Below are positions 12,938 to 24,997 of a stretch of 64,000 nucleotides of DNA, piece after piece. The stretch is from Thermogemmata fonticola. GTDB taxonomy: Bacteria; Planctomycetota; Planctomycetia; Gemmatales; Gemmataceae. Every line of letters starts with the position of its first letter. The stretch's first letter is position 1. The stretch lies in NCBI RefSeq assembly GCF_013694095.1, contig NZ_JACEFB010000006.1:62001-126000 (forward strand). Direction: 5' to 3'. A program made the translations under genes and the position numbers. The notes under the pieces are model-generated. The model did no database searches and was not told the DNA's origin. It saw nothing but the letters and a program-made list of their open reading frames with translations.

Positions 12938-13639
12938 GGCACTTCCTCCACTTCGCCGGCACGGGCGAATTCTGGACGGCACTTATTCATCGAGTGGGCA
13001 TACGGCGGTCAGTTCCCGCACCGCACGGGGAAAATGAATACCGACTGACGCCGACGACCCGGCTCCGGGGTGCCGTCGCTTGGGATCACGGCAGGCAGGT
13101 CTTCTGGCTTTCGGCTCAAGCGAACCTCGGCAGCCTTCCCATGACGTGATGTCGTCACAGTGGCATCAGATGCACCAGGTTCTTGCCGATCACAGCAGCG
13201 GCCCTGCGCCGGATTTGCACCGGACTTCCCTGTTACCTCACCCCTGATCCTGGTTCCAGTTTGCGTGGGAGCAAAGCCGATGATCCCACGCCCTGCCCAG
13301 ACACGATCCGTGACCGGGGTGAACCTGCCGCTTGCTCCCATATCTATAAGGAGGGGGAGATCAAGGCTAGAGGTGGTCTTTCCCGAAGGAATGAGGAGGG
13401 AATCTCTGAGTGCTCAGAGCGTAGGCTGAAGATCGTTGGGGCGGTATTGAGGCCGTCATTTCTAGGGCGGAAGGACCGTTGTCGCTCGATATTCGCCAGT
13501 TGCCCTAATGTTGTTTGGGCTTTCATCAGGGTCCTGTCCTTACTAGCATGTCTGTAGGAAAAGATGAAATGCCCGGATTGGCAGCCCCAGGCAGCGAGCG
13601 GATAAATGCCGGCGGGATGGGTTTTAGCACAATAGGGAC
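12938..13639. other. Intergenic region between DUF6580 and cysE
   Basis: Divergent 702-nt region. Its left half is the riboswitch and leader of the DUF6580 gene, including a second small hairpin CCCG...CGGG near 13012-13026. The right half (13330-13639) precedes cysE and contains no frame, repeat or motif that I can support. Confidence 0.6.
13083..13300 (-). promoter_or_regulatory. Cobalamin (B12) riboswitch
   Basis: On the minus strand, reading from about 13300 down, the conserved core appears in order: an upstream hairpin with arms GCGTGGGA/TCCCACGC (13292-13264), GGTAACAGGGAAGTCCGGTG, CAAATCCGGCGCAGGGCCGC, TGCCACTGTGACG, GGGAAGGCTGCC, and the B12 box AGCCAGAAGACCTGCCTGCC at about 13108-13089. 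This is the RF00174 architecture. Immediately downstream is a GC hairpin (GACG...ACCC/GGGT..CGTC, about 13078-13053), probably part of the expression platform. No strong U-run follows, so a translational or antitermination mode cannot be decided. The first gene downstream is the DUF6580 membrane protein. Confidence 0.93.
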
Positions 13640-19007: not shown

Positions 19008-19132
19008 CTTTTTCACGTGATGCGTCTGTCAATGACCACGACTCACGTGATGCACCGTCAATAGACACGAAGTTTTTTCGGTCACCGAAAGCTCTGGGAA
19101 TGGACTTTGAAATGCGCCACATAAAAGACGTG

Positions 19133-19182
19133 AGGCACGAGATTCGGCGCGGGGACTCGCAACCCGCGCTAGTCTCGTGCCT
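19133..19182. repeat. Two-tier hairpin A with GACTCGCAA loop
   Basis: Outer stem AGGCACGAGA / TCTCGTGCCT (10 perfect pairs), internal loop TTCG/TAG, inner stem GCGCGGG / CCCGCGC (7 pairs), terminal loop GACTCGCAA at 19154-19162. It lies 125 nt downstream of the queG stop. It shares its loop exactly with hairpin B while the stems differ. It could be a REP-like element, a processing site or part of an RNA; no U-run follows. Confidence 0.75.
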
Positions 19183-19200
19183 GAGAGAAAGGAATTTTGG

Positions 19201-19237
19201 TCGTTGGGAGCCGGGACTCGCAACCGGCTGAAAACGA
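19201..19237. repeat. Two-tier hairpin B with GACTCGCAA loop
   Basis: Outer stem TCGTT / AACGA, internal loop GGG/GAA, inner stem AGCCGG / CCGGCT, terminal loop GACTCGCAA at 19215-19223. The outer stem extends by wobble pairs on both sides. Same architecture and same 9-nt loop as hairpin A, 18 nt downstream of it. On the minus strand the loop reads TTGCGAGTC, close to a tRNA T-loop with one extra G. Confidence 0.72.
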
Positions 19238-19400
19238 TTATTGCAGGAGGCGTGCCAAATGGGTCTTGGATATCGAATCCACTCCTTCTAAAATTACATA
19301 ACATCCTGGAATATAACACTTTATATCGATCGAAGTCCTGACAAATGTGAACGAGATCGATTTGGTAACCCCCTTTCTGCTTCGGGCGCCAGATTCTGTC

Positions 19401-19417
19401 TGTTGCATTATGCAACA
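19401..19417. promoter_or_regulatory. 17-bp palindrome, possible operator
   Basis: TGTTGCAT-T-ATGCAACA, perfect 8-bp arms around a single T. The dyad with one central base is typical of a dimeric repressor site. No divergent promoter or adjacent regulator is visible, so the bound factor is unknown and chance cannot be excluded. Confidence 0.35.
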
Positions 19418-19666
19418 CCGTCGTGTTCAATTCCGCAGGCCGTAGAAGGCCAGAGTTGAAAAGCACCTGAGGAAGGAGGTGTCCGAAAACATGAATCGAA
19501 TGTTCAGAGTCTGAGTAAAACTCTACCTGTTTTTCCTCGGTTCATCTCATGCAATCGAATTGTTCGTCGCGGAAAGGGGCAATAGGGGTTGGACACCGAT
19601 GAACGGCGTGAGTGGGATTGGGGCGCAGAAACTCTCCTTAGCAAGGAAGGAAGGTGACGGGATAGT

Positions 19667-19739
19667 GCGCGCTACTGGACTCGAACCAGTGACCTCCACA
19701 ATGTCAATGTGGCACTCTAACCAACTGAGCTAAGCGCGC
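19667..19739 (-). tRNA. tRNA-Val (anticodon GAC)
   Basis: Full cloverleaf on the minus strand: acceptor GCGCGCT/AGCGCGC, D arm with GCTCAGTTGGTTAGAGT, anticodon stem CCACA/TGTGG with loop TTGACAT giving anticodon GAC (reads GUC/GUU valine codons), variable loop AGGTC, and T arm ACTGG-TTCGAGT-CCAGT. The 3' CCA is not encoded. 73 nt, no intron. Confidence 0.95.
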
Positions 19740-19848: not shown

Positions 19849-21036
19849 TTACTTTTTGCCTAGGCAATAAAGGACGCCCCGGTCTGTTCCCACGCATAGG
19901 CAGTCGGAACCAATTCCAGCCGAGGATGTGATTGGGGCATCGAGCAGAATCTCCTGAAGTTTCTGCCCAGTTTTCAGGTCCAAAACGTAAAAATGGCCAT
20001 CACGCGAAAGACAGCCGACGTAGACTTTATCCGCGGCGATGACCGGGGAAGCATCAACATGCCCTTCCGTGGCGAAATCCCACAACTTTTTGCCCGTTGT
20101 GATGTCTAAGGCATAAACTTTCCGGTCACGACTGCCTGCCACCACGATGTTTTGAGCGACAGCGGGCGAGGAGTAAAACGGCATAGCCCGGCGTGGTGGC
20201 TCGAAAGTCCAGAGTTTGTCCCGCTTTTGGATGTCCGCAACGACAATCTGATGGGAAATCATAGTGACAATCAGGCGATTGCCAACGACGGCGGGAGTGG
20301 AGACGGTTTCGCCCCCCAATGCAATAGACCCGATTTCCTTGCCCGTTCGCAGATCCACAATGTGGACGACCCCATCACTGCATCCCGTCGCAAAAGCCCG
20401 GTGATCATGAATAGGTGCGGCGGCGTTAATGGGGCCGTCAATCGACACGCTCCAGATTTTTTTCCCTTCGCTGTTGAGACAATAGAGTTGGGAATCGTGT
20501 GCTCCGAAAATGATGTGATCGTTGTAGATATTGGCTGCCGCGTGGATTTCCCCATCAGCCGCAAATTTCCAGCGAATTTTGCCAGTGGTTGCATCGAGGC
20601 AGTAAAAGGTTCCCTCAAGATCGCCGATGAAAACCAAGTTCTTATGCACGGTCGGAGCAGCCTTCATGGGTCCCAAGCGGGTTTTCCAGAGCAGCTTGCC
20701 TGTCGGGAGTTCCAGGGCATATAAGTGCTTGTCCAATGAGGCGACAAAGACCTGTTGGCCGACGATCGCGGGTGCCCCTTCGATGGCATCCCCCGTGCGA
20801 AATTGCCAGCGTTCCTCCAGGGGATGGGGAAGCGCATGGGCGACGGCTCCAGTCATCGCGGGATTACCCCGAAAGTAGCTCCAATCTGCGACCGCCGTCA
20901 ACGCGCAGAAAAGGGTGGAAATGAGAACGAAGAGAGCAGCAGACAGTAGCCGTTGCCAGGTGTTTACCAAGCCGCTTCGTAAACGCGCAGTAAATCGTTT
21001 TCGGTAACGGGTCGGGGGTTGAAGCGTGCAGTCCAT
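19849..21036 (-). CDS. Exported PQQ-like beta-propeller repeat protein
   Basis: About 395 aa. A basic N-terminus and a hydrophobic segment (LLSAALFVLISTLFCALTAVA) form a signal peptide, then WSYFRGNPAMTG and a run of propeller blades: repeated units of the form DGKxYALDxxTGKxxW (for example HLYALELPTGKLLWKTRLG, TFYCLDATTGKIRWKFAADG, KVYALDITTGKKLWDFATEG). Such proteins resemble PQQ dehydrogenases and BamB but usually lack the cofactor site. ATG 21036 was chosen since GGAGGAGG lies 10 nt upstream; it overlaps the alcohol dehydrogenase gene by 73 nt. A TTG at 20970 would start just at the signal peptide. Last gene of the reductive cluster. Confidence 0.82.
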   Translation of the reverse strand: MDCTLQPPTRYRKRFTARLRSGLVNTWQRLLSAALFVLISTLFCALTAVADWSYFRGNPAMTGAVAHALPHPLEERWQFRTGDAIEGAPAIVGQQVFVASLDKHLYALELPTGKLLWKTRLGPMKAAPTVHKNLVFIGDLEGTFYCLDATTGKIRWKFAADGEIHAAANIYNDHIIFGAHDSQLYCLNSEGKKIWSVSIDGPINAAAPIHDHRAFATGCSDGVVHIVDLRTGKEIGSIALGGETVSTPAVVGNRLIVTMISHQIVVADIQKRDKLWTFEPPRRAMPFYSSPAVAQNIVVAGSRDRKVYALDITTGKKLWDFATEGHVDASPVIAADKVYVGCLSRDGHFYVLDLKTGQKLQEILLDAPITSSAGIGSDCLCVGTDRGVLYCLGKK

Positions 21037-22169
21037 TGTTGGTGCGCCTCCTCCGCAAGCAAAGGTAGGATAGTCCGGCTCACACCACAATCCCGCAGGC
21101 TTTGCGGGAGTCCTGCCGCCTGGGTGAAGCGAAGGGTGCGTTCTACTAGCTGATCCGTTGCCCGTTGCTTTCCGCCGTATTCGTGAGCCAAAAGCTCCGC
21201 ATACAACGGTTCCACCCACTCGCCGTTGAAACGAATCACGTGAGGTAGCATGATGCCAATCGCCACTCCGTGGGTTATACCGTAATGCGCGGTCAACGGA
21301 TTGGCGCAACTATGGCAGATACCCAACATGCTGTTCTCAATTGCCATGCCAGCTAAATGGGCGCCGAGAAGCATGTTCCAGCGTGCCGGCAAGTGACGGG
21401 GTTCCCGCAGGACGGTCTCAAAGTGCTGGGACAGCAAATGCCAAGCCGTGCGCGACAGCATTTGGGAGAAAGCATTCCGCCGCGTGCAAACAAAAGACTC
21501 CACAGCGTGGGCGATTGCGTCGATGCCAGTGGCAGCGGTCACCTGCTGTGGCTGCGTGAGCGTTAGTTCAGGGTCGAGCAGAACGATTCGGAAAGCAGCC
21601 TTGCGATCACCGCATGCCATCTTCAGATGCGTTTTTTCATCGGTGATCAGGGCGTAGCTCTGGGCTTCGCTGCCAGTTCCTGCGGTGGTAGGAACACCGA
21701 TCGAGGGGAGCATAGGGCGGCTGGCCTTGCCAAAACCCTTGTAATCACTCATGCGACCGCCATTGGTCAGCAGGAAGTTGATCCCTTTGGCACAGTCCAT
21801 CGCGCTGCCCCCTCCCACAGCGACGATGCAATCGATCTGGTGGGAACGAGCAAACTCTGTGCCGGCTTCCACTTCGCGTTCGGTTGGGTTTTCCTTGACC
21901 CCATCGAACAACGCCACTTTCAAACCTGCCGCTTCCAGGATGGCTTGGGCACGTTGGGGGTGACCGGCCTGTTCCAGCCCTGGATCCGTGACCAATAGAA
22001 CGCGCTGGCCTCCAAGCGACTGAACCGCTTCGTCCAGACGTTGCAACACTCCTGGTCCAGCAATCACACGGTTAAGAGGCTGGAAGTCGAAAGGAAGGAG
22101 CTGTTCTCCGGCTATGCTGTCCCAAGCGGGGGGCGGCGCTGCCAAGGCTACGCCGCTGCGTGCACTCAT
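20964..22169 (-). CDS. Iron-containing alcohol dehydrogenase
   Basis: 401-aa group III NAD(P)-dependent alcohol dehydrogenase. The nucleotide site is IVAVGGGSAMDCAKGINFLL, and GVPTTAGTGSE is the conserved central motif. The metal is bound by GIDAIAHAVES (Asp and His) and by the two His of CHSCANPLTAHYGITHGVAIGIMLPHV. The N-terminus has about 20 extra residues. GGAG lies 10 nt upstream of ATG 22169. It follows the aldehyde dehydrogenase gene by 49 nt and overlaps the propeller gene, so the natural reading is aldehyde-to-alcohol reduction as the final step of this cluster. Confidence 0.92.
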   Translation of the reverse strand: MSARSGVALAAPPPAWDSIAGEQLLPFDFQPLNRVIAGPGVLQRLDEAVQSLGGQRVLLVTDPGLEQAGHPQRAQAILEAAGLKVALFDGVKENPTEREVEAGTEFARSHQIDCIVAVGGGSAMDCAKGINFLLTNGGRMSDYKGFGKASRPMLPSIGVPTTAGTGSEAQSYALITDEKTHLKMACGDRKAAFRIVLLDPELTLTQPQQVTAATGIDAIAHAVESFVCTRRNAFSQMLSRTAWHLLSQHFETVLREPRHLPARWNMLLGAHLAGMAIENSMLGICHSCANPLTAHYGITHGVAIGIMLPHVIRFNGEWVEPLYAELLAHEYGGKQRATDQLVERTLRFTQAAGLPQSLRDCGVSRTILPLLAEEAHQQWTARFNPRPVTENDLLRVYEAAW

Positions 22170-22218
22170 GACGTGGGTCTCCGTGGATCCGGAACGGCAG
22201 GGGTCTTACCGGTTAGGG

Positions 22219-23652
22219 TCATACATGGACTGGTCCTTCAAACTGGAAAGCACGGGCACGAAACAGGAAGTCCACGATATTTCCCTCGTGCGGTTGGAGC
22301 CAATTCAGTTTGATGGTGGGGATGGGGCCAATGTTCAAACGGTCGATGTGGGTGGCATCCAGCAATGCACGCTGGAATTTCGGGTCTTCCGTGATCGCAG
22401 TGCACACCAGGGTAGGCCCAATTTTTTCCAGCATTTTTTCTTGGGGACATTGAACAACCGTACAGAAGGGGAACATATACTCCTTCTTGGCCATGGCCAC
22501 GTCCGGATGGTCACAATGAATGACGGTAGGACGGAGATAATCGCAGCGCTCTTTTTTGACGAGCCGCGGTCCATACTTGGGACCGGTCATGTCCGTGACT
22601 CCAGGTTCCTTGAGGGCATTGTCGATGTCAGCATTGACGGCATCTGCCTGGCCCGGAACCGTGAATGCTGCTAAGCCGGCTTGAGGATCATCGGGAGGCA
22701 GAGGTTGCACCGGTCCGATGCGGGCTGCAATCGCTTCGGCGATGGCACGGGTGTGGCGTGAAGCCCAAATCCCCGAGCAATTGATGCATCCCCGACCACT
22801 GTTGACATAAACGCTATCCACCATGAGGTCGAGATACTTTTCCCATTGATCAACCTTGTCGTCGCCCAGAAGGATTTTGCTAAAACCGGGGCCATGTGCC
22901 TGCACGCGCGGATTGCCCTTGTACTGCTCGACAGTGGCACTGCTCCCGAAGATTAGGCTTCTTTGGCAGCTATTGAGGACCGCCGCCCCAATATCTCCAA
23001 GGCCGGGATAGATGGAGATAGCCTGCTTGGGAATCCCCGCAGCCGTAAAGGCGGCAAACATGCGATAGGGCGTCCATGGTTCTTGGGGACCTGGTTTGAG
23101 AACCAAGCCCACTTGCAGCGGAATGATCGGTAGCCACAGAGTGTGCACGCCTGGAGAATTTGAGGGCAGCACCAGTCCTAAGACAGGGGATTGACACTGA
23201 TAACTGACGGGGACGCCGCGATGCTCGACGCCAAAACCTCGGCTGAGGATATTCAGGTCCAAGCCGCGAGTTAGGGAGTCGAGGATTTTGTCCATGTTGG
23301 TGAGGACAAAATGATTTTTTTCCATGTTAAAGCGGCACATATGCTCGGGCAAGCCAGTCGTAGCGGACTGCATGCGGACGAACTGCTCCGGCGTTTGAGT
23401 GCCATCACCGATGGGCAATTCGGCTTTGAGGTAGAGGTCTGCCGCTTTTTTGACCATTTGGAGCAGGTCCTGTATGGGAATTTGCCGCAGAACATCCCGC
23501 GCGCGTTGGGCATGGCGCATGTCTCGTTCGACCATGGCGGCATTGGCCCGGCCTACTTCCGCCAACACTTCTCCGGTCAGAAAGTGAACGACCTTATCGC
23601 TTTCCAGGCTTTCGTAAGGCTCACCCCAGCGGAGCACGGGGATGCGGATCAC
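22219..23652 (-). CDS. Aldehyde dehydrogenase superfamily protein, probably acyl-CoA/acyl reductase
   Basis: 477 aa. The catalytic Cys lies in YVNSGRGCINCSGIW; the cofactor-binding region includes VLGLVLPSNSPGVHTLWLPIIPLQVGLVLKPG and LIFGSSATVEQYKG. Where classical aldehyde dehydrogenases carry ELGGK with the general-base Glu, this protein has AHGPGFSK, so the Glu is absent. Loss of that residue is known from CoA-acylating aldehyde dehydrogenases and LuxC-type acyl reductases. GTG 23652 is supported by AAGGAG about 8 nt upstream. Between a LuxE-like adenylating enzyme and an alcohol dehydrogenase, a reductive role (acyl thioester to aldehyde) is the best reading. Confidence 0.85.
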   Translation of the reverse strand: MIRIPVLRWGEPYESLESDKVVHFLTGEVLAEVGRANAAMVERDMRHAQRARDVLRQIPIQDLLQMVKKAADLYLKAELPIGDGTQTPEQFVRMQSATTGLPEHMCRFNMEKNHFVLTNMDKILDSLTRGLDLNILSRGFGVEHRGVPVSYQCQSPVLGLVLPSNSPGVHTLWLPIIPLQVGLVLKPGPQEPWTPYRMFAAFTAAGIPKQAISIYPGLGDIGAAVLNSCQRSLIFGSSATVEQYKGNPRVQAHGPGFSKILLGDDKVDQWEKYLDLMVDSVYVNSGRGCINCSGIWASRHTRAIAEAIAARIGPVQPLPPDDPQAGLAAFTVPGQADAVNADIDNALKEPGVTDMTGPKYGPRLVKKERCDYLRPTVIHCDHPDVAMAKKEYMFPFCTVVQCPQEKMLEKIGPTLVCTAITEDPKFQRALLDATHIDRLNIGPIPTIKLNWLQPHEGNIVDFLFRARAFQFEGPVHV

Positions 23653-23863
23653 GGCTTGGTCTCCTTCAGAAATACAAGGTGAGAGAGAAAAAACTCACCG
23701 GGTGTTGAGATAACGGATGGCAGGTTCGTGCAAATTCCTTTATGTTTTTGCCATTCGACTGGTTGCAACTCTGGGTTGGACAGAGAACAGGCCAGCGTTA
23801 CAGGTATTGTAGCGTACAGCCGCAACGCAACAGCCTTACACCACGTTTGTTTCAGACGGTTTG

Positions 23864-24997
23864 TTAGTACACGCCTACTGTGGTTTGAGCCGCAATTTCG
23901 TGGAAAGGCCGGACACCACTGACACCGTCCCAAGGATACTTGAAACAGGGAGGCTCACGTTCGCCCTCATCGCGCTCCGGGAAGCGTGGGACGAAGAACT
24001 CCTTGGTCAAGGTGGTCAAAAGAACTCGTCCGGACTGGCCGTAAGGAACCAGCTTGTTGTAATCCTTGAAGTCCACTACTTCGACTACGGCCCGAGGCTG
24101 CGGGGCGTAGTAGGTGATTTTGTATTTGTCCTTCGCTGTGGGCATATCGGCGGCTGCCAATCCCATAAGGGTGTTGCCATAAGTGGGAGCAATGTAGATA
24201 TCCGGTCCCAGATATTCCTCAATCATGAAGCGGATCCATTGGGAAGTCATTTCTGTACCGCCGCAGAAGATGCCCGTGACTCCCATTTGCCGCAAGGTGG
24301 TACCTTGTTCTTCCAAACGCTTGCAGAGCGCATCGAGGAGTTTGGGCGTCGTAAACATACAGCGGATGTTATGGCCGGCGGTGAGGATGGTCATAGCTTG
24401 ATCGATGCAGTGGTCCTGGTAGGCTCGTAAGTGCTCCATCCAACCCTTTTTGATGAGTTTGACCACCCAACGGGGGTCCAAGTCGATGCAGAAGCAAATG
24501 CCGCCGCGGTACTGGCACAAATGTTCGACAGCCAAGCGGAGGCGGCGCGGTCCGGAGGGACCCAGCATCAACCAATTGGCTCCCTTGGGGAAATATTTTT
24601 CTGGAAGGGTATCCGAAAACATCTCGTAATCAATCCGGAAGTCGTCGCACACAACCCGGCTTTTCGGAATCCCCGTGGTGCCACCCGTTTCAAAGACGTA
24701 CCACGCCCGGTCTTTCATACCCTTGGGAATCCAGCGCTCCACCGGGCCGCCACGAAGCCATTCATCCTCGAAAAAGGGGAACTTCTTGATATCTTCCCAA
24801 CCCTGAATGTCTTTAAGAGGATCAAAATCAAAAGCTTTGGCCTTTTCCAGCCAGAAAGGAGTGCCCGTTTCTGGGGAGAAATGCCAACGCACAATCTCGC
24901 GCACATGGGCGTCGAGTTGGGCTTGGGCATTGCGGATGCGCTCTTCCAGAGTGGTGCCCGTGACCGGGGCAGGCTTTCCAGGGGTGTCGGGTAACAT
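23864..24997 (-). CDS. LuxE/PaaK-like adenylate-forming enzyme
   Basis: 377 aa, adenylate-forming superfamily without a full C-terminal AMP-binding subdomain, a size like LuxE acyl-protein synthetases rather than acyl-CoA ligases of about 430 aa or more. Motifs: WYVFETGGTTGIPKSRVV (phosphate-binding P-loop), ITGIFCGGTEMT-like VTGIFCGGTEMTSQW, PTYGNTLMG (adenine motif) and GQSGRVLLTTLTKEFFVPRFPERDEG near the end. It should activate a carboxylic acid as acyl-AMP and pass it to a thiol. ATG 24997 has AGGAG just upstream. It lies 211 nt before the aldehyde dehydrogenase. The substrate acid is unknown. Confidence 0.8.
   Translation of the reverse strand: MLPDTPGKPAPVTGTTLEERIRNAQAQLDAHVREIVRWHFSPETGTPFWLEKAKAFDFDPLKDIQGWEDIKKFPFFEDEWLRGGPVERWIPKGMKDRAWYVFETGGTTGIPKSRVVCDDFRIDYEMFSDTLPEKYFPKGANWLMLGPSGPRRLRLAVEHLCQYRGGICFCIDLDPRWVVKLIKKGWMEHLRAYQDHCIDQAMTILTAGHNIRCMFTTPKLLDALCKRLEEQGTTLRQMGVTGIFCGGTEMTSQWIRFMIEEYLGPDIYIAPTYGNTLMGLAAADMPTAKDKYKITYYAPQPRAVVEVVDFKDYNKLVPYGQSGRVLLTTLTKEFFVPRFPERDEGEREPPCFKYPWDGVSGVRPFHEIAAQTTVGVY

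What the first reader, a model, noticed from the sequence alone, without database searches (positions are those of the whole stretch)
19133..19237. Tandem hairpins with identical GACTCGCAA loop and covarying stems
Two neighbouring hairpins share the same two-tier shape (outer stem, small internal loop, inner stem) and exactly the same 9-nt loop, while the stems have different sequences. A constant loop with variable paired stems is the usual mark of selected RNA or of a protein-binding palindromic repeat. On the minus strand the loop is near the tRNA T-loop.
Basis: seen in the sequence. Interest (0 to 1): 0.7.

Follow-up and report, generated by a model that had tools for sequence, protein, structure and literature searches.

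The report
σ54-driven twin-loop small RNA of Gemmatales
The two matching hairpins are parts of one previously uncatalogued small regulatory RNA gene, read from the opposite strand through the specialised sigma-54 promoter type, that evolution has kept in about half of the sequenced Gemmataceae bacteria, which all lack Hfq, the usual small-RNA helper protein.

Summary
The two hairpins form one stand-alone gene on the MINUS strand (about 19231→19121): a σ54 promoter TTGGCACGCCTCCTGCA (19258–19242), predicted start, hairpin A (19229–19209), a G-poor linker, hairpin B (19182–19133) and a T-rich tail. The same layout occurs in about half of Gemmataceae genomes (51 of 95 by the hairpin-B model) and in two genomes of a sister family, usually once per genome, without conserved neighbours. 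GCGAGUC is invariant in both loops of 38 analysed genomes. The stems covary strongly. All 38 carry GG-N10-GC upstream, and the predicted start lies a median 2 nt before hairpin A. Tandem enhancer-like sites lie about 147 and 168 bp further upstream; the window's copy is a perfect LuxO-type TTGCAWWWTGCAA. Rfam has no match. Hfq was not found in any of 95 genomes. I conclude: a σ54/enhancer-protein-induced, Hfq-independent trans-acting sRNA whose twin loops bind a partner, either a protein it titrates or mRNAs; which of these is unresolved. The T-loop reading is rejected. No transcript data were available.

The parts
19242..19258 (-). sigma-54 (-24/-12) promoter TTGGCACGCCTCCTGCA
   Evidence: GG-N10-GC at the same place in 38/38 homologues, which were found with hairpin B only
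19121..19231 (-). predicted small RNA, about 110 nt (start inferred 12 nt after the -12 GC; end at the T-tract)
   Evidence: promoter spacing, hairpins and tail; homologues about 105-170 nt, median 123
19209..19229 (-). hairpin A, loop UUGCGAGUC, near the 5' end of the RNA
   Evidence: covariation over 38 genomes: 265 of 304 arm positions paired, permutation mean 189, max 214 in 10,000
19183..19208 (-). G-poor, C-rich single-stranded linker (some relatives carry a small extra hairpin here)
   Evidence: last 18 nt over 38 genomes: 45% C, 7% G
19133..19182 (-). hairpin B: outer stem, internal loop CUA/CGAA, inner stem, loop UUGCGAGUC
   Evidence: 15 of 16 pairs with compensatory changes in 42 aligned matches, covariation 0.56 vs 0.16 shuffled
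19121..19132 (-). conserved tail CACGUCUUUUAU, terminator-like
   Evidence: CAC(U/C)UCUUU-type tail in nearly all homologues; a strict consensus terminator scan found none here
19401..19417 (-). proximal enhancer-like site TGTTGCATAATGCAACA (core TTGCATAATGCAA)
   Evidence: perfect match to the LuxO site TTGCAWWWTGCAA, the only match with 0-1 mismatch in 64 kb; related sites at this distance in relatives
19422..19439 (-). distal enhancer-like site CCTGCGGAATTGAACACG
   Evidence: aligned motif about 21 bp further upstream in most homologues

Best explanation
The region encodes a stand-alone, trans-acting small RNA. A bacterial enhancer-binding protein, active under an unknown signal, binds two upstream sites and lets sigma-54 RNA polymerase start at the -24/-12 promoter. 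The product is an RNA of about 110-130 nt with a 5' hairpin (A), an unstructured C/U/A-rich linker and a 3' hairpin (B) with a U-rich tail that probably ends transcription. Both hairpins present the same motif UGCGAGUC(CC) in a loop; this duplicated loop is the working part. Because Hfq is absent, the RNA must act without it. Its partner is most likely an RNA-binding protein that it titrates through the two identical sites (my estimate about 45%); almost as likely (about 40%) it pairs with mRNAs through GCGAGUCCC and the CU-rich linker. Shown here by comparative sequence: structure, loop invariance, promoter, upstream sites, distribution, absence of Hfq. Inferred: transcription, start and end points, the activator, the partner and the effect. 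The stated confidence is for the sRNA identity, sigma-54 control and the loops as interaction sites, not for the choice of partner.
For: 51/95 Gemmataceae genomes carry hairpin B (one of these hits, G025, lacks the loop and is probably false), and two genomes of a second family of the order carry the whole element. Compensatory changes in both hairpins. GCGAGUC in both loops of 38/38 analysed genomes. Sigma-54 promoter in 38/38 at fixed distance, predicted start a median 2 nt before hairpin A. Tandem upstream sites, LuxO-like in 37% of homologues vs 2.5% of background windows at 3 or fewer mismatches. rpoN in 87/95 genomes. No Rfam match. No conserved neighbours, so it acts in trans. Hfq absent in 95/95 while the control search works. 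Promoter-plus-two-loops pattern: 44 loci in 84,980 species genomes, all but one titled as Planctomycetota.
Against: No RNA-seq or mapped 5' end was available. The tail is not a strict consensus terminator. The complement of the loop, GGGACTCGC, is not enriched genome-wide and no shared start-proximal target was found, which weakens antisense action with a perfect 9-nt match. No other hairpin with this loop was found in the own genome, which weakens a protein that reads the same hairpin in mRNAs. About half of the family's genomes, including one of the same genus, give no hit.
Confidence: 0.8

Rival explanations
1. Antisense sRNA: the loops (GCGAGUCCC) and the CU-rich linker pair with ribosome-binding sites of mRNAs, as Qrr or C-rich-loop sRNAs do.
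For: Stand-alone sigma-54-driven gene, conserved single-stranded motif of 7-9 nt present twice, CUCC in the linker of 22 of 38 copies.
Against: Complement GGGACTCGC not enriched (own genome 38 sites vs 80 control; G055 14 vs 47; G116 14 vs 95); no site lies in a convincing leader and no orthologous gene is shared. Shorter seeds were not testable.
Confidence: 0.4
2. Protein decoy: the twin loops titrate an RNA-binding protein, as GlmY does RapZ or EutX-type RNAs do ANTAR proteins.
For: Duplicated identical loop with nearly invariant closing G-C pairs (38/38 and 36/38 in hairpin A) while stems drift freely.
Against: No protein found; no linked gene; no other hairpin with this loop in the own genome; the distance between the loops varies, which argues against one rigid dimer reading both.
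Confidence: 0.45
3. Cis-acting leader or attenuator of a downstream gene.
For: Hairpin B ends in a U-rich tail.
Against: No conserved gene downstream in 40 loci; in the window the next gene in the transcript's direction, queG, is convergent on the opposite strand.
Confidence: 0.05
4. DNA-level element (protein-binding palindromes) or chance local duplication.
For: Only two copies in this genome.
Against: Conserved across the order with G-U pairs on one strand, sigma-54 promoter and tail.
Confidence: 0.03

Closest known systems
Qrr sRNAs of Vibrionaceae (sigma-54, activated by LuxO; PMC10162802)
   Same: Stand-alone sRNA from a sigma-54 promoter with two upstream activator sites; the window copy has a perfect TTGCAWWWTGCAA, the LuxO site quoted in that paper.
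   Different: No sequence match (Rfam silent), two hairpins with identical loops, Hfq absent in the whole family; most Gemmataceae sites deviate from the LuxO consensus.
GlmY of Enterobacteriaceae (sigma-54, QseF/GlrR sites TGTN12ACA; PMC6075780, PMC7073468)
   Same: Sigma-54-driven sRNA with several upstream sites of TGT...ACA type; a decoy for the protein RapZ.
   Different: No Rfam match; GlmY lies next to the genes of its activator, here no linked activator was found.
ANTAR twin-hairpin RNAs (PMC3369931)
   Same: Two neighbouring hairpins with matching conserved loops, variable stems and conserved closing pairs, read by a protein.
   Different: ANTAR loops are hexanucleotides with A1 and G4 and a 5-12 nt linker in the eut genes; here 9-10 nt loops with GCGAGUC and a linker of about 22-51 nt.
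tRNA T-arm (GGUUCGAGUCC)
   Same: Superficial likeness of GGUUGCGAGUCC.
   Different: Longer loop, U54 and U55 equivalents not kept, no tRNA body.

Membership tests
sigma-54-dependent regulatory sRNA (general kind) | -24/-12 promoter GG-N10-GC at the right distance from the RNA | tested here: met
   38/38 homologues; predicted start a median 2 nt before hairpin A
sigma-54-dependent regulatory sRNA (general kind) | upstream activator sites | tested here: met
   tandem motif about -147 and -168 from the -24 element in most copies; excess over background
sigma-54-dependent regulatory sRNA (general kind) | transcript lost without rpoN | not testable with these tools
   no expression data; rpoN itself is present in 87/95 genomes
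Qrr sRNA | match to the Rfam family | tested here: not met
   no Rfam hit, even at E of 10 or less, except a chance snoRNA
Qrr sRNA | acts with Hfq | tested here: not met
   no Hfq (PF17209) in 95 genomes; the control genomes ring; the Hfq need of Qrr is from general knowledge
Qrr sRNA | LuxO site TTGCAWWWTGCAA upstream | tested here: inconclusive
   perfect in the window, degenerate in most relatives
ANTAR-bound twin hairpins | hexanucleotide loops with A at 1 and G at 4 | tested here: not met
   9-10 nt loops with invariant GCGAGUC; definition from PMC3369931
tRNA or T-loop mimic | 7-nt loop UUCRANY with U54-A58 | tested here: not met
   9-10 nt loop; U54 equivalent is A in 9 and C in 1 of 38 hairpin-A loops
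Any Rfam 15 family | score above gathering threshold | tested here: not met
   on the window and six homologues

The most novel reading that the evidence does not exclude
A new order-wide RNA regulon of Gemmatales: a LuxO-like enhancer-binding protein and sigma-54 induce a twin-loop decoy RNA that controls an unknown RNA-binding protein recognising UGCGAGUC loops, i.e. an Hfq-free post-transcriptional control system unlike described ones.
Probability: 0.25. Interest if true: 0.85.

Novelty: new variant of a known kind. Interest (0 to 1): 0.66.

Why it matters
Few sRNA families are known from the Planctomycetes–Verrucomicrobia–Chlamydiae group (a 2022 survey of Rfam lists 8 for the group, PMC9029176), and literature searches here found no sRNA described from Gemmata. 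This one has a defined promoter, defined activator sites and invariant binding loops in cultured species, so a σ54 regulon and an Hfq-free sRNA mechanism in bacteria with unusual cell biology become directly testable.

Tried and rejected
Other copies in the own genome: none with a hairpin. Known family: none. T-loop or tRNA mimic: rejected. Conserved synteny or a linked activator: none. Genome-wide excess of the loop's complement: none overall; start-proximal targets in four genomes: none convincing and no shared gene. Members outside the order: weak model hits L072, L073, L331 and L332 lack the loops and are rejected. Viral origin: two-loop pattern hits in viral contigs have no σ54 promoter (0 of 75) and look like coding repeats or chance. 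Plasmids: no match. Same upstream site in front of other genes: mostly chance; one DksA-like gene kept as a lead. A first two-sequence model (R1) was superseded by R2.

Full report
What was claimed and what is there. Both exist. In the 4.8-Mb genome the 9-mer occurs 24 times; only these two have complementary flanks (8 and 6 pairs; all others 0–2), and the longer GGGACTCGCAACC is found nowhere else.

Homologues. A blastn search of the intergenic stretch in 99 genomes (the own one and relatives) hit 13 other genomes of the same family, always over the hairpins. In all of them the other strand (minus in the window) shows the same order of parts: TTGGCAY-N5-YTGCW, hairpin with (U/A)GCGAGUCCC loop, C-rich linker, second hairpin with the same loop, CAC(U/C)UCUUU tail. 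A covariance model of hairpin B alone (R2) found it in 51 of 95 family genomes, mostly once; of the weakest hits, G025 lacks the loop and is probably false, and G024 lacks a clear hairpin A. In a wider class sample the only further true members are two genomes of a second family of the same order (L329, L330), with both loops; the promoter is clear in L329 and weaker in L330. A pattern of promoter plus two loops found 44 loci among 84,980 species genomes. All but one are titled as Planctomycetota or lower planctomycete taxa; the exception is a contig titled 'Bacteroidales' whose length equals that of a contig of a Gemmataceae genome in the other collection.

RNA, not DNA. Hairpin B: 98% of cells paired over 42 aligned matches, 15 of 16 pairs with changes on both sides, covariation 0.56 against 0.16 in shuffles and at most 0.10 when slid (this alignment is fitted to the model, and one row is a spurious antisense match; the independent MAFFT alignment of 15 gave 8 of 16 pairs and 0.30 vs 0.11). 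Hairpin A, which was not used in any search model: 265 of 304 arm positions paired against a maximum of 214 in 10,000 permutations. G·U pairs occur in the minus-strand reading. GCGAGUC is invariant in both loops of 38 analysed genomes (three of the 41 loci tabulated, G024, G025 and the fragment G109b, lack a recognisable hairpin A and were left out).

Promoter and activator. GG at −25/−24 and GC at −13/−12 are invariant in 38/38, although the promoter was not part of the search model; the predicted start lies a median 2 nt before hairpin A, so the RNA would begin with a hairpin. About 147 and 168 bp upstream of the −24 element lie two related sites, consensus near TGTTGCRAAATSGCACA, spaced by about 21 bp. 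In the window the proximal one contains TTGCATAATGCAA, a perfect match to the LuxO site TTGCAWWWTGCAA reported for the σ54-driven Qrr sRNAs. In relatives the match is partial but far above background (37% vs 2.5% with at most 3 mismatches). This shows similarity of operator, not that a LuxO orthologue is involved. σ54 (PF04552) is present in 87 of 95 genomes.

Mode of action. Neighbouring genes differ between lineages, so the RNA acts in trans. Hfq was not found in any of 95 genomes with a search that does find it in control genomes. The complement of the loop is not over-represented and no shared start-proximal target appeared in four genomes. The closing pairs are nearly invariant while the stems drift, as expected of a site read by a protein, but the distance between the loops varies. 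I therefore put a protein decoy slightly ahead of antisense pairing, and regard the choice as open.

Relation to known systems. It works like the σ54-dependent sRNAs Qrr and GlmY at the level of transcription, and resembles ANTAR twin hairpins in shape, but fails tested membership features of Qrr and ANTAR RNAs; it matches no Rfam family. It is a new RNA family of an existing kind, with an architecture (duplicated invariant loop, no Hfq) not shared by these relatives.

Limits. No transcript data; the start and end are inferred; the signal, activator and partner are unknown; about half of the family lacks a detectable copy, partly perhaps through incomplete genomes or stricter filters in large searches.

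Noticed in passing
L272:1500-2280 (genome G005): The same upstream site plus a perfect sigma-54 promoter TTGGCACATGAGTTGC precede a DksA/TraR-like gene (P0001, PF01258). Orthologues occur in 84/95 genomes; a few others also have a sigma-54-like promoter 118-173 bp upstream, but the site itself is not general.
   Followed up: partly
95 Gemmataceae genomes: No Hfq (PF17209) in any of 95 Gemmataceae genomes, of interest for sRNA biology in this family.
   Followed up: partly
window 13080-13275 (-): Cobalamin riboswitch, 81.9 bits.
   Followed up: no
window 19665-19739 (-): tRNA-Val(GAC) about 410 bp upstream of the sRNA promoter, same strand.
   Followed up: no
window 20964-24997 (-): Fe-alcohol dehydrogenase (ErcA/lactaldehyde-reductase-like), aldehyde dehydrogenase and AMP-binding CoA-ligase-like genes in a row; possible aldehyde/alcohol pathway; no microcompartment shell gene was looked for.
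   Followed up: partly
L109 (genome G109, second hit): A truncated second copy: loop and 3' half of hairpin B with its tail but no promoter, hairpin A or 5' arm; looks like a decaying duplicate or assembly remnant. Genome G048 has two complete copies (L029, L041).
   Followed up: partly
genome G105: GGGACTCGC occurs 364 times against 84 for the reversed control, unlike other carriers; cause unknown, maybe a repeat.
   Followed up: no
genome G001 (same genus as the window): No hit with the hairpin-B model although the genome is 94% complete; loss, divergence or assembly gap not resolved.
   Followed up: no
L152 (JAIXLE010000034.1): Contig titled 'Bacteroidales bacterium UW1SPNA076' carries the element; its length equals a contig of a Gemmataceae genome (G020:C269), so the title is probably wrong.
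   Followed up: partly
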